From Methanosarcina barkeri str. Wiesmoor (GTDB lineage: Archaea > Halobacteriota > Methanosarcinia > Methanosarcinales > Methanosarcinaceae), in NCBI RefSeq assembly GCF_000969985.1, contig NZ_CP009526.1:372001-436000 (forward strand): 64,000 nt of DNA. Reading direction: 5' to 3'. Within the stretch, counting starts at the first letter, position 1. Each line of letters opens with the position of its first letter. The notes under the pieces were generated by a model, which worked only from the letters and a program-made list of their open reading frames with translations, was not told where the DNA came from and made no database searches. The translations under genes were made by a program, and so were the position numbers. Below, in pieces: positions 17,061 through 59,807 of the stretch.

Positions 17061-17375
17061 TGATGAGCTAGTCCGGGTAGCCCGGCGTTACCTGTAACCC
17101 GAGATCGCCGATACGCGGGGGACGAAGCCAAGGGAAGATGCGTCGAAGGGACTCCAGCCTGGAATCTCAACGGAGAAGCCCCGTCCTGCTTGGATGGTGC
17201 AGGTATGCGGGTTTGCTGGAGAGCAGGTCTTCATACCATAACTGCGGAAACCGGTCGAGGCCCGGAAGGGAGCAGACTTACTGTGGGCAACTATCGCTTG
17301 CGGGGCTGCGGGGTGGAGAAGAGGTCCCAGTCTCCTGGTATCTCCAAGATTCAACGACCCGAGGCGTGCTCATCG
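17061..17375 (+). ncRNA. Signal recognition particle 7S RNA
   Basis: About 315 nt. The ends pair (GATGAGC 17062-17068 with GCTCATC 17368-17374). The SRP54-binding domain IV consensus GGTCGAGGCCCGGAAGGGAG is present near 17252-17271. The 5' part (GTCCGGGTAGCCCGGC, GTTACCTGTAACCC) fits the archaeal Alu-domain hairpins. GC content is far above the surroundings. The RNA is the scaffold for SRP19 and SRP54 in cotranslational targeting. End points are accurate to a few nucleotides. Confidence 0.95.
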
Positions 17376-17512: not shown

Positions 17513-17597
17513 GACGAGATAGCCAAGCCCGGTATGGCGCGGGATTGCTAATCCCGTGATGCTCTGCGTCCCGGGGGTTCGAGTCCCCCTCTCGTCG
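17513..17597 (+). tRNA. tRNA-Ser(GCT)
   Basis: The acceptor stem GACGAGA pairs with TCTCGTC and is followed by discriminator G. The anticodon stem CGGGA/TCCCG holds loop TTGCTAA with anticodon GCT at 17547-17549. The long class II variable arm (GATGCTCTGCGTC) identifies tRNA-Ser, and the T-arm is GGGGGTTCGAGTCCCCC. The 3' CCA is not encoded. It decodes AGC/AGU codons. Confidence 0.97.
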
Positions 17598-17696
17598 TTA
17601 TTTTTTAATTTATTCTGAGTTTAATTTATTCTGAGTCTCGTTTTTGGATGTTATCTAAATTTTCGACCCTAATACTGATTTTCAGATCTACTTGGT

Positions 17697-17826
17697 GAGC
17701 CTATCCCAAAAGCCGCTTTACTCTTAATCATTGGGAATTCTCAGAATTATTTTCATGATCATGAGCTTGATTGATTATTCAAAATACAAGGTCCAAGAAG
17801 CAAATTTCAAGTTTTGGGATGACCTC
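17697..17826. mobile_element. MITE, 130 bp, GAGCCTATCC family, copy 1
   Basis: Terminal inverted repeats GAGCCTATCCCAAAA and TTTTGGGATGACCTC are flanked by the target duplication GGT on both sides (17694-17696, 17827-17829). Internally it is the reverse complement of the copy at 50733-50863 with moderate divergence. No coding capacity. The ends resemble those of the dead transposon at 24954-25809. Confidence 0.85.
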
Positions 17827-17944
17827 GGTAAATAAGCCTCTGATTCAGAAACAAATTTTAAACTTTCAATGAAATTTTTGACATAGATTCTGACTATTCT
17901 TCACCCTCTCTCTTTTTTAAGATCAAAACATAACTCTTAAAAGC

Positions 17945-24953: not shown

Positions 24954-25809
24954 GGGCCTATCCTAACAGTAATATTATGTTGAAATTATAAATTTACTTC
25001 TATGTCATTTCGTGACATCGATGGCGTTCTATGGAACTCCATAGAACCTTATCTTCCTCCACAGAAACCACATACAGGAAGGTCGCGTGCAAATATGAGG
25101 AAGTTAATGAACGGTATTTTTTACGTTGTTATGACTGGTTGTACGTGGAAAGACGTTCCCAGGAGATATGGGTCTAAGTCAACAGTGCATAGATTCCTTC
25201 TATATCTTTGTGAACATGGCATCTATCAGAAGATTTTCAATGAGCTTTTAAACAAAGGTTACGACTTGAAGAAAATAGATTTTTCTCATTGCTTTACTGA
25301 TACAAAGGATATTCCGGCTAAAAAGGGGAAATATCGGCTACGATGGACACAAAAAAATAAAAGGAATAAAAATAAGCGTTTTAGTAGATTTACAGGTTTT
25401 ACCTCTCTCGATTATCATTAAATGATTCTACACTTTAGATTCTACACTTTATATACCTACACTTAAAAATTTCAATATAAAAAGACTTATAGGAAGGCCT
25501 GTTAACAGGCTTTCCAAAGTAACAGCTGATGCAATGTATGATACAGCTAAAATTAGAAAATATAACAGGAGAAGATGAATAAAGTCCAATATATCAGTAA
25601 ATAAAATAAACAGGATGAACAATAAGAGAGTACGACTAATAAAGGTAAACCAGGAAGAATACAAAAAGAAAAGCATAGTAGAAAGGTTTTTTATCTGGAG
25701 AGAGTTATGCAAGAAAGTATTGCCAAGATATGAAATTAAAGAGACATCATATTTAGGAGTTTTAATGGTAGCAGTAATATTGGATTAAATGAACTTTTGG
25801 GATAGGCTC
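24954..25809 (+). mobile_element. Dead IS5-type insertion sequence
   Basis: It is bounded by GGGCCTATCC on the left and TTTTGGGATAGGCTC on the right, the same ends as the ~131-bp MITEs at 17697, 47182 and 50733. It encloses a disrupted transposase. I do not see a clean target duplication. About 856 bp remain. Confidence 0.75.
25002..25788 (+). pseudogene. IS5-family transposase, frameshifted and internally deleted
   Basis: The first 140 codons are intact and match the IS5-family N-terminal domain (FRDIDGVLWNSIEPYLPP; GIFYVVMTGCTWKDVPRRYG). Reading stops at 25419-25421. After a deletion covering most of the catalytic core, fragments VTADAMYDTAKIRKYNRRR and, further on, IVERFFIWRELCKKVLPRYE with TSYLGVLMVAVILD give the typical C-terminus, ending at 25788. 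The DDE triad is not recoverable, so it cannot move itself. It may be the source of the related MITE ends. Confidence 0.85.
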
Positions 25810-34373: not shown

Positions 34374-36080
34374 ATGATTGATATTAAAAATATTACACAT
34401 TACATATTTTCACATACATATCTTATAATTTTTTTAATATTATTAGTACCTTCCTCAACAGCTATTGCACTCTCTAATAACATATCTTCCGATTTCAATA
34501 TTCATTATAATAACACGTCAGTTACGCTTGATGTTTCAGAGACAGGGCTTGAAAACTCAACCCGAACAATATCTTCCTTTGGGGAAAGAAAAATAGGAAG
34601 TCAGAACGCTGCAGAAGCCTCTCTATTTATAAAAGAGGAGATGGAAAAGGCAGGCCTGCAGGTTTCTCTGGACAATTTTTCCGCGCGGGTACGTACACGG
34701 GACTTCAATTACTGGAATGTAAGCGGCACAAACGTAGTGGGGATTAAAGAGGGAAACGACCTTAAAGACGAGATAATTCTTGTAACCGCTCATTATGATT
34801 CAAGAATAATTGTACGTCCAGAATCAGGTTTACGAGATATTTTTGATTCTGAGATAAGAAAGCCCTATCTCTGGCCAGTCTGGTCCGATACTTACGTTTG
34901 CGAATCGGCCAACGGAACCGGAGCGGATGACAATGCCGGAGGGGTGGCTTGTATGCTTGAACTTGCAAGGGTCTTGCAGAATGAGTCTTTTGACAGGACA
35001 ATATATTTCATTGCTTTTTCCGGAGAAGAATACAATCTTCTTGGCAGCCAGGCCTGGGTTGAAGCCCATTCTGAGTTGGAAAATGATATTGTTGCAGTTA
35101 TTAATGTGGATTCTATAGGAAACGAGCCTCTCTACATAGAATATCTTCCCCAGAATGCCTGGCTTAAATCCGTTCTTGAAAACGAGACAAGAGACCTAGG
35201 GATCGAAATTCAATGTGAAATTCCGGATTATTCAAGCTTTATTCATCCTTTAATCGGAGGAGATCATGAAATATTCTGGGAAAGTGATATCCCTGCAGTT
35301 GCAATTTGCCATCACAACGATAGAAACTTCCACAAGTTAAGTGATACAATTGACAATGTTGATTTTTCGGTTGTCAGGAATGCAAGTGTTCTGACTGCCA
35401 AAAGTCTCATCTATCTGGCTAGTCCTGACGAAAATCAGGGTCCTTTTGTCAATATTTCCAATTCACACGTTTCTGGAGACTCTCTTAAACTTATCTATAA
35501 AGTATCTGACCCAGAGGCTACTATTAATATCTTTTTTGACAATCAGAACCTGGGAAATCTCCAATCAGGCAGGAATTTTTCACTTCCGGAAGGAGAACAT
35601 ACTATCAAAGTTTTTGCAACCGACTGTTATGGAAACAGAGGCTCTGATAGTATAAATATTGTAAATGAGAAAAACCAAAATAGAAGTTTTGAGCCTCCAA
35701 GTCAGGATAAAAAATACTGCGGTAATTATATAATTGGGTACCCAAAAAATTTTGTGGACTCAAATAGAACTCTTTATTTTTATCTGGATAATTTTGGGCC
35801 TCTGTATCCAGGGAATCTTTTGATTCTTACTCCAGGAAGTCATAACCTAAAAATATGGTCAGAAAATGAAAACGGAACTGTGTTTATGGAGAATGAAATT
35901 TCTGATTTTAGAAAATACTCTATGGAAATGATTGAGATAAATAATCCGATTGCTGATCGTAAAAATCCTCTTCTTTTCCTTTCATGTTTATTTGCAATTT
36001 TGGCTATTGTTGCGTTTTATGGGAAGCGGATAAAAAGAAAATTATTGAATCTAAAAGGTTCTAAAGATAAATATAAATAA
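34374..36080 (+). CDS. Secreted, membrane-anchored M28-family metallopeptidase
   Basis: 568 aa. The N-terminal signal sequence is ~12-34. The M28 Zn-peptidase domain is ~55-345, with ligands and catalytic residues visible: His140 and Asp142 (TAHYDSR), Asp185/186 (GADDNAGG), Glu218-Glu219 (FSGEEYN), Asp in AVINVDSIGN and His in CHHNDRNFHKLSD. After it come two Ig-like beta domains (DPEATINIFFDNQNLG), and a C-terminal membrane helix (LLFLSCLFAILAIVAF) precedes a basic tail. The enzyme would act as an aminopeptidase or related peptidase on the outer face of the membrane. A close paralogue is at 42535-44310. Confidence 0.9.
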   Translation: MIDIKNITHYIFSHTYLIIFLILLVPSSTAIALSNNISSDFNIHYNNTSVTLDVSETGLENSTRTISSFGERKIGSQNAAEASLFIKEEMEKAGLQVSLDNFSARVRTRDFNYWNVSGTNVVGIKEGNDLKDEIILVTAHYDSRIIVRPESGLRDIFDSEIRKPYLWPVWSDTYVCESANGTGADDNAGGVACMLELARVLQNESFDRTIYFIAFSGEEYNLLGSQAWVEAHSELENDIVAVINVDSIGNEPLYIEYLPQNAWLKSVLENETRDLGIEIQCEIPDYSSFIHPLIGGDHEIFWESDIPAVAICHHNDRNFHKLSDTIDNVDFSVVRNASVLTAKSLIYLASPDENQGPFVNISNSHVSGDSLKLIYKVSDPEATINIFFDNQNLGNLQSGRNFSLPEGEHTIKVFATDCYGNRGSDSINIVNEKNQNRSFEPPSQDKKYCGNYIIGYPKNFVDSNRTLYFYLDNFGPLYPGNLLILTPGSHNLKIWSENENGTVFMENEISDFRKYSMEMIEINNPIADRKNPLLFLSCLFAILAIVAFYGKRIKRKLLNLKGSKDKYK

Positions 36081-40694: not shown

Positions 40695-41423
40695 ATGTGG
40701 AAGGTAATGTTACTTTTTATTCTGGTTCTGAGTGCCGCAGTAGGTATAACCAGTGCAGATACCGGAGGATATACCGTTGGTCCCTGCCCACCCGAAGAGG
40801 AGCTCAAAAAATTGGGTGATACCGTTGACATGAGCGGGGCGGACAGGACTCTTACCTTCTGGGAATTTCCCTTGTCATTCAAGGTAGCTTATATATTGGG
40901 ATACCTGGCTGCTTTCATTTCCTTATTCAAGCTGGCTCCCATAATTCTTGGTCAGATAAGGAGTCTAAGTAAAAATGTTACTCAAAAGAAAATTATTTGT
41001 TATGTGCTGAGGAAGCCAGGGTGTACGCCATCTGAAATTTCAAGAAACCTGAAAATTAGCCTGGGATCTATAAGGTATCAGATCAAAGCACTCAAAGCCG
41101 AAGAAGAGTTGACTTTAACGAAGGAAGGAAAGTTCACAAGAGTCTTTCAAAATTCCAATGTTTTCACAAACAACGATAAAACAATAATCTCACATCTTAA
41201 AGGCAGTACAAGAAAACAAATACTCCTTAATATTCTGGAAAATCCTGAAATTACAAATCAGGAAATCTCAGAAAAACTGAATTTAGACAAAAGCACTACA
41301 CACTGGCATATAAAAAAATTAAGGGAGGATAATATTATTTTCTCCGAAGTAGAAGGCAAGTTTACAAAATATTTTGTGAACCCGTCTGTGGAGCCGGAGT
41401 TGTTGAAATGGCTCAAAATATAA
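40695..41423 (+). CDS. Membrane-bound double winged-helix regulator, copy A
   Basis: 242 aa. An N-terminal signal (LLFILVLSAAVGITSA) is followed by a ~45-residue outside segment (GGYTVGPCPPEEELKKLG) and one membrane helix (VAYILGYLAAFISLF). Two cytoplasmic winged-helix domains follow (CTPSEISRNLKISLGSIRYQ and NQEISEKLNLDKSTTHWHIK). The topology places sensing outside and DNA binding inside in one chain. It follows the secreted protein gene by 36 bp, which suggests that protein or its ligand as the signal; this is inference. The second wHTH domain is almost base-for-base identical to copy B. Confidence 0.82.
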   Translation: MWKVMLLFILVLSAAVGITSADTGGYTVGPCPPEEELKKLGDTVDMSGADRTLTFWEFPLSFKVAYILGYLAAFISLFKLAPIILGQIRSLSKNVTQKKIICYVLRKPGCTPSEISRNLKISLGSIRYQIKALKAEEELTLTKEGKFTRVFQNSNVFTNNDKTIISHLKGSTRKQILLNILENPEITNQEISEKLNLDKSTTHWHIKKLREDNIIFSEVEGKFTKYFVNPSVEPELLKWLKI

Positions 41424-41844: not shown

Positions 41845-42327
41845 ATGTTGGAACTACGTAGTTTTAGCCATGGCTATGGTCAGATTACCTACCACATCGT
41901 GTTGGTACCTAAATATCGATACAGTATATTCTACAACAAGCGGATTAAAAAGGATTGCGAGTTGATCCTCAGCAGTATTTGCATGGAAAAAGGCTACAAA
42001 ATTCATGCAATGGAAGTTGTAGATGATCATGTTCACTTGTTTCTAGAGTTCCATCCAAGTACTTCTCTATCAGAGGTAATTCAATACTTGAAAGGAGGAA
42101 GTTCTTACATACTTTTCAAGCTTCATCCTGAAATGAGAAAACAGTATTGGAGTGGAAGTCTATGGTCAAGTGGAAAGTTCTATCGATCTGTTGGGAATGT
42201 AACTGCTGACACAATCAAGCATTATATTAAGGAATCGCAGAGAATAGCGAAAACAGAAGCTCAATCACATAGGTTAAAGAAATCCGGGCAAGGTGGAGTT
42301 CGAATAAACCTTCCAGAGAGAATTTGA
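41845..42327 (+). CDS. tnpA: IS200/IS605-family Y1 (HUH) transposase TnpA
   Basis: 160 aa. The HUH motif is DDHVHLFLEF (His62, His64) and the catalytic Tyr is Tyr127 in TIKHYIKES. The N-terminus ITYHIVLVPKYRYSIF is typical of the family. It nicks and joins single-stranded ends of the element. A short GGCACC/GGTGCC hairpin at 41794-41817 lies just upstream, like a left end. The gene's 3' end merges directly into the duplicated leader that precedes the chimeric peptidase, so the right end appears lost. No tnpB is linked. Confidence 0.9.
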   Translation: MLELRSFSHGYGQITYHIVLVPKYRYSIFYNKRIKKDCELILSSICMEKGYKIHAMEVVDDHVHLFLEFHPSTSLSEVIQYLKGGSSYILFKLHPEMRKQYWSGSLWSSGKFYRSVGNVTADTIKHYIKESQRIAKTEAQSHRLKKSGQGGVRINLPERI

Positions 42328-42534: not shown

Positions 42535-44310
42535 ATGTCAAGCAGGATACTTTTCATTACACTGGCAACTTTACTTTTTCTATCTTCCTTTACGGCAGCA
42601 ACAATTGAAAATCTAGACGAAAGGGAACCATCAAGCAACTATACAGTAACACCGTCATTTGATACTGAAATCGGGCCAGTTAACAAGAATGTAGACGCCC
42701 TGGCGGCCTACAGTTTTGATTCCAACATGCAACATAACAACACATCTATATCTTTTGATGTTTCTCAAACCAGGCTTGAAAACTCAACTCGAATTATATC
42801 TTCTTTTGGAGAACGAAAAATTGGAAGTAAAAACGCTGCTGAAGCTTCCCTATTTATAAAAGATGAAATGGAAAAAGCAGGCCTGCAGGTTTCTCTGGAC
42901 AATTTTTCCGCGAGGGTACGTACACGTGACTTCAATTACTGGAATGTAAGCGGCACAAACGTAGTGGGGATTAAAGAGGGAAAAGCTCTTAAAGACGAGA
43001 TTATTCTCGTAACCGCGCATTATGATTCAAGAATAATTGTACATCCAGAATCAGGTTTGAAGGATATTTTTGATTCTGAGATAAGAAAGCCCTATCTCTG
43101 GCCAGTCTGGTCCGACACCTATATTTGTGAATCGGCCAACGGAACCGGAGCGGATGACAATGCCGGAGGGGTGGCCTGTATGCTTGAACTTGCAAGGGTC
43201 TTGCAGAATGAGTCTTTTGACAGGACAATATATTTCATTGCTTTTTCCGGAGAAGAATACAATCTTCTCGGCAGCCAGGCCTGGGTAGAAGCCCATCCTG
43301 AGTTGAAAGATGATATCGTTGCAGTTATTAATGTGGATTCTATAGGAAACGAGCCTCTTTACGTAGAATATCTTCCCCAGAATGCCTGGCTTAAATCCGT
43401 TCTTGAAAACGAGGCAAGGGACTTAGGGATCAAAATTCAATGTGACATTCCGGATTACTCAAACTTTATTCATCCTTTAATCGGAGGAGATCATGAAATC
43501 TTCTGGGAAAGTGATATTCCTGCAGTAGCAATTTGTCATCACAACGGTAGAAACTTCCACAAGTTAAGTGATACAGTTGACAATATAGATTTTTCGATCG
43601 TCAGGAATGTAAGTGTTCTTACTGCCAAAAGTCTCATCTATCTGGCTAGTCCTTACGAGAATCAGGCTCCATTTGTTAATGTTTCCAATCCAGAGGTCTC
43701 TGGAGCCTCATTTGAACTCCTCTATAATGTATCTGACCCAGAGGCTACTATTGACATCTTCTTTGACAACCAGAGCCTGGGAAATCTCCAATCAGGCAGG
43801 AACTTTTCACTTCCTGAAGGAAAACATACTATCAAAGTTCTTGCAACCGACTGTTATGGAAACAGAGGCTCTGATAGCATAAACATTGTAAATGAGGAAA
43901 AGCAGAACAGAAGTTTTGAGCTTTCCGACCAAGAAATAAAGTATTGCGGCGGGAAATATATAATCGGGTATCCAGAAAATTCTGTGGACTCAAACAGGAC
44001 TCTTTATTATTACCTAGATGGTTTCGGGCCTCTGGATACGGGAGGTTTTTTAGTTCTTACCCCGTGTAGTCACAATCTAAAAATATGGTCTGAAGATGAA
44101 AATGGGGTCCTCTTCATGGAAAATGAAACCTCTGACTTTAATAAATACTCTATGGAAATGATTGAGATAAATAATCCGATTGCTGATCGTAAAAATCCTC
44201 TTCTTTTCCTTTCATGTTTATTTGCAATTTTGGCTGTTATTGCGTTTTATGAGAAGCTAATTAAAAAGAGTTTTCTAGGTCAGAAGGATTCTGAAGTTAA
44301 GAAGAAATAA
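42535..44310 (+). CDS. Chimeric M28-family metallopeptidase with borrowed signal region
   Basis: 591 aa. Residues ~1-62 (ILFITLATLLFLSS; SSNYTVTPSFDTEIGPVNKN) are homologous to the N-terminus of the secreted protein at 40197, not to peptidase 34374. From HNNTSISFDVSQ on, it is ~85 percent identical by eye to peptidase 34374-36080. Zn and catalytic motifs are intact (TAHYDSR, GADDNAGG, FSGEEYN, CHHNGRNFHKLSD), as are the beta domains and C-terminal helix. The upstream 200 bp also match the 40197 leader. The peptidase therefore uses the promoter and signal peptide of another gene whose remainder lies at 44658-44954. Confidence 0.88.
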   Translation: MSSRILFITLATLLFLSSFTAATIENLDEREPSSNYTVTPSFDTEIGPVNKNVDALAAYSFDSNMQHNNTSISFDVSQTRLENSTRIISSFGERKIGSKNAAEASLFIKDEMEKAGLQVSLDNFSARVRTRDFNYWNVSGTNVVGIKEGKALKDEIILVTAHYDSRIIVHPESGLKDIFDSEIRKPYLWPVWSDTYICESANGTGADDNAGGVACMLELARVLQNESFDRTIYFIAFSGEEYNLLGSQAWVEAHPELKDDIVAVINVDSIGNEPLYVEYLPQNAWLKSVLENEARDLGIKIQCDIPDYSNFIHPLIGGDHEIFWESDIPAVAICHHNGRNFHKLSDTVDNIDFSIVRNVSVLTAKSLIYLASPYENQAPFVNVSNPEVSGASFELLYNVSDPEATIDIFFDNQSLGNLQSGRNFSLPEGKHTIKVLATDCYGNRGSDSINIVNEEKQNRSFELSDQEIKYCGGKYIIGYPENSVDSNRTLYYYLDGFGPLDTGGFLVLTPCSHNLKIWSEDENGVLFMENETSDFNKYSMEMIEINNPIADRKNPLLFLSCLFAILAVIAFYEKLIKKSFLGQKDSEVKKK

Positions 44311-44954: not shown

Positions 44955-44988
44955 ATTCTCAAACATGATTACTCAATTTATCGCTGCT

Positions 44989-45714
44989 ATGTGGAAGATA
45001 GGATTACTTTTTATTCTGGTTCTGAGTACCCTAGGTACTACGAGTGCAGACACCGGAGGATATACCGTTGGTCCCTGCCTACCCGATGAAGAACTTGAAA
45101 AATTGGGCGATACTGTTGACATGAGCGGTGCTGACGTAACGTACTCATTCTGGGAATTTCCTTTGTCAATCAAAATCGCTTACATAATCGGGTATTTGAC
45201 TGTTTTCTTTTCCTTTTTCAAACTGGCTCCCATAATTCTTGGTCAGATAAGGAGCCTAAGTAAAAATGTCAACAAAAAGAGAATTATTAATTATGTGCTG
45301 AATGAGCCTGGGTGTACGCCATCCGAAATTTCAAGAAACCTGAAAATTAGCCTGGGATCTATAAGATATCAGATCAAAGCACTCAAAGCTGAAGATAAAT
45401 TGATCTTAACGAATGAAGGAAAGTTCACAAGAGTCTTTCAAAATTCCAATGTTTTCACAAACAACGATAAAACAATAATCTCACATCTTAAAGGCAGTAC
45501 AAGAAAACAAATACTCCTTAATATTCTGGAAAATCCTGAAATTACAAACCAGGAAATCTCAGAAAAACTGAATTTAGACAAAAGCACTACTCACTGGCAT
45601 ATAAAAAAATTAAGGGAAGACGATGTCATTTTCTCTGAAGTAGAAGGCAAGTTTACAAAATATTTTGTGAATCCAGCTGTGGAGCCGGAGTTGCTGAAAT
45701 GGCTCAAATACTGA
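44989..45714 (+). CDS. Membrane-bound double winged-helix regulator, copy B
   Basis: 241 aa from ATG 44989, aligned with copy A (MWKIGLLFILVLS); the ATG at 44965 would add 8 residues. Same layout as copy A: signal or first helix, outside segment GGYTVGPCLPDEELEKLG with one Cys, membrane helix IAYIIGYLTVFFSFF, two winged-helix domains. DNA from about 45423 to 45550 is identical to 41133-41260, apart from single changes, suggesting gene conversion that keeps the DNA-recognition domain the same. Both copies should bind the same sites. Confidence 0.82.
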   Translation: MWKIGLLFILVLSTLGTTSADTGGYTVGPCLPDEELEKLGDTVDMSGADVTYSFWEFPLSIKIAYIIGYLTVFFSFFKLAPIILGQIRSLSKNVNKKRIINYVLNEPGCTPSEISRNLKISLGSIRYQIKALKAEDKLILTNEGKFTRVFQNSNVFTNNDKTIISHLKGSTRKQILLNILENPEITNQEISEKLNLDKSTTHWHIKKLREDDVIFSEVEGKFTKYFVNPAVEPELLKWLKY

Positions 45715-47090: not shown

Positions 47091-47181
47091 GTAGATTCCT
47101 TTACTAATTATCTGTTATCAATTAAGAGATATCACTTGCATTAGTGAATATGGCAAGAATTTATGAGCAAATATAGATAGT

Positions 47182-47313
47182 GAGCCTATCCCGAAACTCA
47201 GAATTTGATTTTTTTGAATCTTGTATTTGGAACAATCAATTGAATACCTAATCACTAAAATAATCCCAAAAGCTCACGATGATTTAGAATAAAATAGGTT
47301 TTGGGATAGGCTC
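47182..47313. mobile_element. MITE, 132 bp, GAGCCTATCC family, copy 2
   Basis: Ends GAGCCTATCCCGAAAC and GGTTTTGGGATAGGCTC are inverted repeats, flanked by target duplication AGT (47179-47181, 47314-47316). Same orientation as copy 3 at 50733. Confidence 0.87.
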
Positions 47314-47419
47314 AGTAAATATATGCAATAATTTTTGTTTTTTATAACAAAATTATATTTCTCTCAGTGTTTTTTTTATAAATATATTTCTTGCAATGAT
47401 TTCTTAAAAGATAAAAAGT

Positions 47420-49184: not shown

Positions 49185-49298
49185 AAATCTCGGATAAAAA
49201 GAGCCGGAAGAACATCGATCAAAAAAATATTGCAAAAAACATGTTTTATCCCGAAATTATTTCGCGTTAACTATGTTATTTGTAATCCCTTATCTTTT

Positions 49299-50207
49299 GT
49301 GAAACTTGACAGGAAAAAGATCCATTGGATCATTGCTCAAAAGTTGAAAGGGGAATCCTCCTATACGATAGCTGAGATCCTCTGGATCCCAGCTCGCCGA
49401 TTTCAGCAGATCTATAAAGAATACGTTGAAACTGTGGCCAGCTCCCCAAGTTGGCAATAATCTTGGAAGACCAAAGAAGCCATTATCCTCTGACGAAAAG
49501 GAATTGATTGATCGAACTTATTTAGATTACAAGTTTGGAGCCTGTGACCTTGAGATTTTCATGAAAGGCAAATATACTCGTAAGATATCTCTTAACAGAA
49601 TCCATAAATATCTACTCAGCATGAACCTTGTCGGTGAGAACCGAAAAAAGAAACTGAGACGAAAATGGTACAGATATAACATGAACACAGCATGTCTGCT
49701 GCACGCATCGATTGGCACGAAAACCCCAGATTAGGCTTGCAGGTCTGTGCCATTCTTGATGAGTCACCAAAAATGAATTGCAGGTGGAGAATATGTTCAT
49801 GTAACATGGAGAACACCATTAAAGTGATTGATGAACTTGTCAGTGAGTACTGTGACATATGCCTTTTAAGGAAATTATCGTGGAAGTGAATTCAGAGTTC
49901 ACAGGATCAATAAAGATGGTTCATAGAATAGTGTTTAACTCTAAGACGCATTGAATAACCTGGAATTAAACCAATACTTGCAAGGGTAAGACATCCTCAG
50001 ACAAACGGAAAATAGAGAAATAGTTCTATACATATTAAAGGTTTAGAGGAGAGTTTGAGTTTTTCGAATAATTCATACAGTGGTTGTAACAAGAGGCTTC
50101 ATGGAGCCTTGAAACTTGAACAGTTAGAATCATCACAAAGTATATTCTGGAATAGATTACCGGCTGAGGTAATATTCAGAATAAGAGTGAAATTGGTTGA
50201 GTTGTGA
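49299..50207 (+). pseudogene. Decayed DDE integrase-core transposase
   Basis: Protein-like stretches run through several frames: WIIAQKLKGESSYTIAEIL (helix-turn-helix), NLGRPKKPLSSDEKELIDR, ISLNRIHKYLLSMNLVGENR, ARIDWHENPRLGLQVCAILD, then remnants of the DDE core and FRGEFEFFE, ending RLPAEVIFRIRVKLVEL at a TGA (50205-50207). This is the order of an IS481-like integrase-core transposase. At least four frameshifts and many stops. No element ends identified. Confidence 0.8.
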
Positions 50208-50374
50208 AAATATATAAAAAGAAAAAAGTTTCAAAGTGTAATTATTTCAGGATAAAACATATAATTTGTTAAAATTTCGTTCTTTGTTAAAATAAATAAT
50301 CCTCACAAATCTTATCTCTATGTTTTTATCTTCAATCATAGGATTCTATTTCGACCTCACTGTTTTCGTAAATC
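50208..50374. other. Spacer with a short shared repeat
   Basis: GAAAAAAGTTTCAAAG followed by TATTTCAGGATAAAACA (50221-50259) matches 33160-33198 (GTTTCAAAGCGAAATCATTT). No gene seen. Confidence 0.4.
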
Positions 50375-50643: not shown

Positions 50644-50732
50644 GCTAATATATTCATATTATTAATTAAATAATTCGTAGAACTTAATTCAAAGCCGTCA
50701 CATAATGAAGTCACACAATAAATGTATTAGTT

Positions 50733-50863
50733 GAGCTCATCCCAAAACTTGAAATTTGCTTCTTAGGCTTTGTATTTCGAACAATCAATAAAGCTCAAGA
50801 TCATGAAAACAACTTTGAAAAATTTCCAACGATTACTAATAAAGTGTCTTTTGGGATAGGCTC
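50733..50863. mobile_element. MITE, 131 bp, GAGCCTATCC family, copy 3
   Basis: Ends GAGCTCATCCCAAAAC and TCTTTTGGGATAGGCTC, flanked by target duplication GTT (50730-50732, 50864-50866). Confidence 0.87.
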
Positions 50864-50901
50864 GTTATTAATTCATACCACTGGACTCTTTGTATTACTA
50901 T

Positions 50902-50985
50902 TAATAAACATTAATAATACTACTAATAAACATTAATAATACTACTAATAAACATTAATAATACTACTAATAAACATTAGCAATA
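50902..50985. repeat. 22-bp tandem repeats before the methyltransferase operon
   Basis: Three full and one partial copies of TAATAAACATTAATAATACTAC. The core TAATAAACATTAATA is near-palindromic. The array ends ~40 bp before the start codon and just upstream of the TATA-like TTTATATTTT (50996-51005). Confidence 0.85.
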
Positions 50986-59248: not shown

Positions 59249-59466
59249 TTATCTTTCCTCTTGCATGTACCAGAGACACTTCTGTCTCCATTTGCAGGTC
59301 CCGCAGACTTCATTAATGTCGGATGGATTAGCTAGTTGTGAATTGATTAAACTGAAGTTATCTTTCCTCTTGCATGTACCAGAGACACTTCTGTCTCCAT
59401 TTGCAGGTCCCGCAGACTTCATTAATGTCGGATGGATTAGCTAGTTGTGAATTGATTAAACTGAAG
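59249..59466. repeat. Perfect 109-bp tandem duplication at the 3' end of the DUF1284 gene
   Basis: 59249-59357 and 59358-59466 are identical as read. The unit covers the last ~36 codons of the DUF1284 gene (from FSLINSQLANPS to the stop). The gene uses the inner copy and stays intact; the outer copy is now 3' flank. Confidence 0.95.
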
Positions 59467-59807
59467 GCTTTATCTGCCTCCATGATTGTTCCTTCTTTTA
59501 TCTTTAATTTCTCGATAACAACAAGATCCATACTCTTTAACCTGCCAGAGATAGGTGATTCCTGCACAGTGCATTCCCTTTTGCCTGGACAGGACTCACA
59601 GATTACATCACATTCGGATACCAGTTCCAGAGGTCTTGAAGGAAAAGCCTTAAGATCTGAAATTACGGCCTTCAAATTTGCCACAAAAATCGGGCTGTAC
59701 CCATAACCCTGAAAACCCTGAATGCAGCAAAGGTGATGAGCTCTGATCTTCAGGCATTTAGACCCTGTTTTAGAACCCGATCCAGATGTGTTCGATTTTT
59801 TGAGCAT
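59358..59807 (-). CDS. DUF1284 cysteine-rich protein
   Basis: 149 aa. Signature CLKIRAHHLCCIQGFQGYGYS near 23-43, then CDVICESCPGKREC and a C-terminal CGTCKWRQKC. The eight-plus cysteines suggest iron-sulfur binding (family described as predicted iron-sulfur binding). Function unknown. It is 64 bp downstream of the DUF1847 gene on the same strand and convergent with hdrB. The last 36 codons are duplicated in tandem. Confidence 0.85.
   Translation of the reverse strand: MLKKSNTSGSGSKTGSKCLKIRAHHLCCIQGFQGYGYSPIFVANLKAVISDLKAFPSRPLELVSECDVICESCPGKRECTVQESPISGRLKSMDLVVIEKLKIKEGTIMEADKAFSLINSQLANPSDINEVCGTCKWRQKCLWYMQEER

What the first reader, a model, noticed from the sequence alone, without database searches (positions are those of the whole stretch)
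17697..17826. MITE family (~131 bp) with clean 3-bp target duplications; three copies and a likely dead parent in one window
Copies at 17697-17826, 47182-47313 and 50733-50863 have GAGCCTATCC-type ends flanked by GGT, AGT and GTT duplications. The dead IS5-type element at 24954-25809 has the same ends, so it or a relative is the probable source of transposase.
Basis: seen in the sequence. Interest (0 to 1): 0.55.

Follow-up and report, generated by a model that had tools for sequence, protein, structure and literature searches.

The report
Jumping miniature repeats carrying a gene
A methane-producing archaeon carries about a hundred copies of a 130-base jumping repeat that makes no enzyme of its own, and twice in the same genome such a repeat has carried a neighbouring gene to a new place, an archaeal case of a kind of gene mobility reported mostly in bacteria.

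Summary
The three ~131-bp copies, their GAGCC-type ends and the GGT, AGT and GTT duplications are exactly as described. The genome (4.9 Mb; its nearest nameable relative is Methanosarcina barkeri MS) holds at least 102 such places. Of these, 91 keep both ends, and 69 of the 91 have an exact 3-bp target duplication (6.8 expected by chance). Each window copy has a precise empty site with one triplet in at least one relative. The element at 24954-25809 is a dead IS5-family relative; a copy with both transposase ORFs open and perfect ends lies elsewhere in the genome. IS5-associated Methanosarcina MITEs of this size are already in print (PMC3852290), so the MITE itself is ordinary. The unexpected part is outside the window. 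Two ~927-bp units, each made of a ~22-bp MITE end, an intact GNAT acetyltransferase gene and a full MITE, sit at different sites with their own outer duplications (ATT, ATC). Relatives have empty sites, and the gene's native, repeat-free locus survives in three of them but was not found in this genome. This is a mobile insertion cassette built from MITE ends, here in an archaeon. Transposition in trans is inferred, not tested.

The parts
17697..17826 (-). MITE copy M1, 130 bp, subfamily shared with copy M3
   Evidence: sequence; alignment; empty site in G003 with a single GGT
17694..17696 (.). GGT, left target-site duplication of M1
17827..17829 (.). GGT, right target-site duplication of M1
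47182..47313 (+). MITE copy M2, 132 bp, second subfamily (the subfamily that bounds the GNAT cassettes)
   Evidence: sequence; empty site with a single AGT in G003, G029, G004 and G027, 4 of 7 genomes searched
47179..47181 (.). AGT, left target-site duplication of M2
47314..47316 (.). AGT, right target-site duplication of M2
50733..50863 (+). MITE copy M3, 131 bp
   Evidence: sequence; empty site in G003 with a single GTT
50730..50732 (.). GTT, left target-site duplication of M3
50864..50866 (.). GTT, right target-site duplication of M3
24954..25809 (+). Dead IS5-family element (856 bp) with related ends; no target duplication directly outside the ends
   Evidence: 90.4% identical to clean copy L180
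25002..25421 (+). First transposase ORF of the dead element, open for 139 aa (PF13340); the second ORF is broken into pieces
   Evidence: ORF; Pfam E 3e-21; broken second ORF

Best explanation
The ~131-bp elements are non-autonomous MITEs. They are moved in trans by the DDE transposase of an IS5-family element of the 858-bp type that shares their 15-16-bp ends GAGCCTATCCCAAAA. The transposase is encoded in two ORFs that probably have to be fused by a -1 slip at an A6G4-6 run. Insertion duplicates 3 bp at AT-rich, weakly palindromic targets. Because recognition seems to need only the terminal ~22 bp, two MITE ends in proper orientation can carry the DNA between them. At a GNAT acetyltransferase locus, a full MITE on one side and a truncated MITE end on the other made a ~927-bp mobile insertion cassette that moved to two new sites. 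SHOWN: ends, 3-bp duplications, empty sites, identical passenger at two sites, native locus in relatives. INFERRED: transposase identity, frameshift, trans mobilisation, how the cassette formed.
For: MITE: exact 3-bp duplications in 69 of 91 copies against 6.8 expected; precise empty sites for all three window copies; four subfamilies of 38, 23, 23 and 6 copies among 94 full-length copies, with at least ten copies having a 100% identical partner. Parent: 857-858-bp copies with matching ends and 3-bp duplications in relatives (L158 AAT, L180 AAC, L156 AAA) and one degraded copy with a duplication in this genome (L101, TGT); seven near-identical copies in G006 and four in G029; ORF A and ORF B match positions 4-103 and 112-256 of one 258-position IS5 transposase model. 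Cassette: outer duplications ATT and ATC while the inner MITE has none; empty site for the first unit in 3 of 3 relatives and for the second in 2 of 3; first ~790 bp identical in both units; passenger corresponds to native sequence in G003, G029 and G004 up to the MITE border, with no MITE end within the stretches read there; the GNAT ORF is intact and nearly unchanged.
Against: No transposition was observed. L097, the copy with both ORFs open, lacks an exact duplication (ATA/AAA), and L098 is broken in ORF B, so no copy in this genome is proven active. MITE and IS share little beyond the ends. 22 of 91 MITEs lack an exact duplication, though 12 of these differ by one base. The empty site of the second cassette is anchored on only ~11 bp on its left, where another repeat adjoins. 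The two cassettes differ by small indels at the inner MITE junction.
Confidence: 0.9

Rival explanations
1. The MITEs are moved by a second IS5-family element of the genome, the L086 type (872 bp, ends GAGCCTATCCGAAAA, open 275-aa frame in a single ORF).
For: L086 is intact as a single frame and scores 265 bits to the IS5 transposase model. Its ends differ from the MITE ends at one or two positions.
Against: In the four copies with a matching duplication it is TTA or TAA (L086; L170, L171, L173), whereas the MITE duplications take 28 different triplets. MITE ends carry CCCAAAA, as in the 858-bp type.
Confidence: 0.07
2. The repeats are not mobile: they are structured intergenic repeats (RNA or regulatory) kept by function.
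For: Some copies fold well as RNA (M2 + strand z -4.9, the L106 copy z -6.1).
Against: Folding beyond the paired ends is not consistent (M1 z -0.4 as RNA and 0.2 as DNA). 3-bp duplications and precise empty sites show insertion.
Confidence: 0.02
3. The GNAT units are not transposed cassettes: two independent duplications of a chromosome segment happen to lie next to MITEs.
For: TSD-matched long pairs of ends also arise by chance: 10 of 55 outward pairs had matching triplets where ~4 are expected at the shuffled-flank rate.
Against: Both units start and stop at the same bases, each has its own outer triplet, the inner MITE lacks one, and relatives have empty sites.
Confidence: 0.04

Closest known systems
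Archaeal IS5-associated MITEs of Methanosarcina (table in PMC3852290: M. acetivorans, partner ISMma12, 140 bp, 24 copies, IR 16, DR 3; M. barkeri, partner ISMba19, 147 bp, 5 copies, IR 15)
   Same: Genus, IS family, size and end length, and for the ISMma12 entry the 3-bp duplication; MITE and IS alike only at the ends (section read).
   Different: Sequences are not given in the text read, so identity with those families was not tested; ~100 copies here.
Mobile insertion cassettes (MIC231 of Bacillus cereus; qnrD and qnrS2 cassettes; passages of PMC3913671 and PMC5444012)
   Same: A gene without a transposase between inverted ends, with target duplication.
   Different: Here one boundary is a complete MITE, the host is an archaeon, and the native source locus is visible in relatives.
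TIME-COMP and other MITE-bounded composites (start of abstract of PMC13367494 in a listing; integrons in PMC10969869, passages)
   Same: Genes carried between MITE copies, transposase supplied in trans.
   Different: Those are Tn3-type or bacterial; here one side is a ~22-bp MITE remnant and the ends are IS5-type.

Membership tests
MITE | Short (<~600 bp), no transposase ORF, terminal inverted repeats | tested here: met
   129-145 bp for 90 of 91 copies (one of 153), ends at least 11/15 on both sides
MITE | Multi-copy with target-site duplication | tested here: met
   at least 102 places; 69 of 91 exact 3-bp duplications
MITE | Empty sites in relatives | tested here: met
   M1 in 1, M2 in 4, M3 in 1 of 7 genomes searched
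MITE | Mobilised in trans by a related transposase | not testable with these tools
   inferred from shared ends and duplication length
IS5-family insertion sequence (presumed partner) | IS5-type DDE transposase | tested here: met
   PF13340 and PF01609; two halves of NF033580 in consecutive order, each under its whole-protein cut-off when scored alone (88.2 and 105.9 of 110)
IS5-family insertion sequence (presumed partner) | Same ends and 3-bp duplication as the MITE | tested here: met
   L156, L158, L180, L101
IS5-family insertion sequence (presumed partner) | Functional frameshift joining the two ORFs | not testable with these tools
   A6G4-6 run kept in 8 of 10 aligned copies, A5 in the dead window copy and L156
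Mobile insertion cassette (GNAT unit) | Passenger gene, no transposase, bracketed by IS-type inverted ends | tested here: met
   GNAT domain PF13420
Mobile insertion cassette (GNAT unit) | Target duplication around the whole unit and movement as a unit | tested here: met
   ATT and ATC; empty sites
Mobile insertion cassette (GNAT unit) | Mobilisation by a cognate transposase | not testable with these tools
   inferred
ArsN1 arsinothricin N-acetyltransferase (passenger gene) | Score above the curated NCBIfam cut-off | tested here: not met
   best model ArsN1b at 104.7 bits against a cut-off of 210; called only a GNAT acetyltransferase

The most novel reading that the evidence does not exclude
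In Methanosarcina these IS5-type MITE ends act as a gene-capture system that needs no transposase gene of its own. A full MITE plus a ~22-bp MITE remnant turned an acetyltransferase gene distantly related to antibiotic-inactivating enzymes into a transposing cassette. In this lineage the gene survives only in mobile form, its native locus having been lost. Further candidates (G000:C2:4452932-4454112 with a 132-codon ORF; 2049451-2052749, MITE plus intervening DNA plus IS) would make capture recurrent.
Probability: 0.3. Interest if true: 0.6.

Novelty: new member of a known kind. Interest (0 to 1): 0.38.

Why it matters
MITEs are usually treated as passive debris. Here an archaeal MITE family is shown by empty sites to have inserted recently, and its ends have carried a complete gene to two places, with the native source visible in close relatives. 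That gives an archaeal example of MITE-borne gene mobility with both the before and after states preserved. It also indicates that ~22 bp of end may be enough for recognition, which can be tested in genetically tractable Methanosarcina.

Tried and rejected
RNA or DNA hairpin function: folding is strong in some copies but not in M1. L086-type IS as partner: duplications differ. Systematic search for further cassettes in the 403,171 bases of G000 held: of 55 outward long pairs of ends not in MITE pairs, 10 had matching triplets. Of these, two are ISs (L101, L086), two are the GNAT units, one is a MITE with another IS inside (L116) and one is a 277-bp MITE variant. The remaining four (418411, 2049451, 2541424, 4452932) are about what chance gives and are not claimed. 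The named-genome scan for the GNAT gene gave 17 loci, 16 Clostridia or Bacillota and 1 Lokiarchaeota, none a Methanosarcina record; records close to the window's genome may be left out there.

Literature: nine searches of the held library. Papers opened: passages of PMC10969869, PMC3129680, PMC3852290 (plus one section), PMC3913671, PMC5444012 and PMC8211752. No archaeal mobile insertion cassette bounded by a MITE was seen in those listings and passages. Subscription papers on archaeal IS diversity are not held, so absence in print is not claimed.

Full report
WHAT IS THERE. The first is inverted relative to the third; the second belongs to another subfamily. The host genome (G000, 4,907,186 bases in two contigs) is unnamed. 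Its relative G003 carries a MITE on its small contig at practically the same coordinates as the hit in the M. barkeri MS plasmid NZ_CP009527, so G003 is taken to be M. barkeri MS.

COPY NUMBER AND DUPLICATIONS. Three searches with different subfamily members give 102 distinct MITE places, 94 of them 120-150 bp (merged). This is a lower bound, since only 40 of ~130 first-look candidates per search were scored. 91 of 102 keep both ends, and 69 of these 91 have an exact 3-bp duplication; shuffling right flanks among copies gives 6.8 on average and 16 at most. Of the 22 without one, 12 differ by a single base, and two of the 22 are the inner MITEs of the cassettes below. In the 69 clean sites, T stands 5 bases before the duplication in 74%, A at the mirror position in 84%, and A or T at the W positions between them (-4, -2, and their mirrors) in 90-100%, an AT-rich palindromic preference. 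In the genus set, 27 of 30 genomes match the cassette-plus-MITE query, mostly by its MITE part.

EMPTY SITES. Joining the flanks with one triplet kept, and searching the loci fetched from relatives, gave junction-spanning alignments with a single triplet for M1 in G003, for M2 in G003, G029, G004 and G027, and for M3 in G003, out of seven genomes searched. For the other genomes no junction-spanning alignment was obtained; they are untested, not filled.

THE PARTNER IS. The window element at 24954-25809 has a degraded left end, no duplication directly outside its ends, a first ORF of 139 aa (PF13340) and a second ORF broken into pieces. Clean copies are 857-858 bp: L180 in G029 (AAC duplication), L158 in G006 (AAT) and L156 in G013 (AAA). 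In this genome L101 (895 bp, broken ORFs) has a TGT duplication. L097 has perfect ends and both ORFs open, but ATA/AAA flanks; L098 has perfect ends but a broken second ORF. ORF A and ORF B match consecutive parts of the same IS5 transposase model and PF13340 and PF01609 respectively. The switch from ORF A to ORF B lies at an A6G4-6 run kept in 8 of 10 aligned copies. That this is a programmed -1 shift, and that the catalytic triad is split between the ORFs, is inference from the motifs FTD, DAMYD and VERFF and from recalled knowledge of IS5. A second, single-ORF IS5 element with ends GAGCCTATCCGAAAA duplicates TTA or TAA and is less likely to be the partner.

THE GNAT CASSETTES. At G000:C2:2224152-2225080 and 2847474-2848399 two units begin with the same ~22-bp MITE end, continue with ~775 bp holding a 165-codon GNAT acetyltransferase gene (intact; PF13420) on the opposite strand, and end with a complete MITE. 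The outer flanks are ATT/ATT and ATC/ATC, while the inner MITE has no duplication of its own. The two units are identical over their first ~790 bp; they differ by small indels at the inner junction, one substitution and a 3-bp insertion in the MITE. G003, G029 and G004 have an empty site for the first unit (3 of 3, with substitutions at the triplet in G003 and G029); G003 and G029 for the second (2 of 3), the latter anchored on only ~11 bp on the left because another repeat adjoins. The passenger equals, at 95-96% over its main 670-690-bp block, a native locus in G003, G029 and G004 that has no such ends within the stretches read. In G003 the homology stops at the MITE border. There the native sequence reads AAATGGATAAAG, so the left flank GAT of the inner MITE in the second unit fits an insertion at that place. 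The flanks of the native locus are 86-90% conserved in G029 and G004; in G000 only a 78% match, of a kind also present as a second copy in G003 and G029, was found for one flank and no long match for the other. So in this genome the gene was found only in mobile form. Against the native genes of G003, G029 and G004 the cassette has 4, 8 and 11 differences in synonymous codons and 3, 1 and 8 in nonsynonymous codons. The protein is nearest to the ArsN1 and phosphinothricin acetyltransferase models but far under their cut-offs, and its nearest named relatives are from Clostridia, 78% identical at best.

HOW IT LIKELY WORKS. The IS5 transposase binds the terminal inverted repeats of any element in the cell. 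MITEs supply both ends at ~130 bp spacing, and the cassette supplies them at ~927 bp. That a ~22-bp remnant serves as one end suggests little beyond the TIR is needed. The likely history is a MITE insertion beside the GNAT gene, truncation of a second MITE on the other side by deletion, movement of the whole, and loss of the donor locus. The order of events is inference.

NOVELTY. IS5-associated MITEs with 16-bp ends and 3-bp duplications are already listed for Methanosarcina (PMC3852290, section read), and mobile insertion cassettes and MITE-bounded composites are known in bacteria. The family is ordinary. The archaeal MITE-built cassette with preserved donor and empty sites is a new member of a known kind.

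Noticed in passing
L116:501-2108 (G000:C2:1094129-1095736): A 453-codon DDE transposase element (PF01609) sits inside a MITE with a 10-bp duplication AAATCACTAT, so the whole still has MITE outer ends and an ATT duplication.
   Followed up: partly
L112:501-1681 (G000:C2:4452932-4454112): Fragment of the partner IS, a 132-codon ORF that looks membrane-bound, and a MITE-like end, with outer TAT/TAT; a possible second cassette, but the match could be chance.
   Followed up: partly
G000:C2:2049451-2052749: A MITE without its own duplication and the L097 IS copy without its own duplication share the outer triplet AAA over 3.3 kb; a possible composite, could be chance.
   Followed up: no
window 49242-50260: About 1 kb that matches at ~84% a repeat present at least 19 times in G001; it looks like the remains of another IS just left of M3.
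   Followed up: no
window 50896-50979: 22-bp tandem repeat, 3.8 copies at 98%, starting 33 bases right of M3.
   Followed up: no
window 59249-59466: Perfect two-copy tandem duplication of 109 bp overlapping the 3' end of the ORF on the minus strand at 59358-59807.
   Followed up: no
window 17061-17375 and 17513-17597: Archaeal SRP RNA and a tRNA gene directly upstream of M1.
   Followed up: no
window 34374-36080 and 42535-44310, with 40695-41423 and 44965-45714: Two close paralogous pairs of a predicted secreted peptidase-like protein and a membrane-anchored regulator-like protein (named by eye), with an IS200-type transposase gene (PF01797) at 41845-42327 between them.
   Followed up: no
L153:865-1499: Another repeat whose end stretches recur many times in relatives adjoins the left side of the second GNAT cassette.
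   Followed up: no
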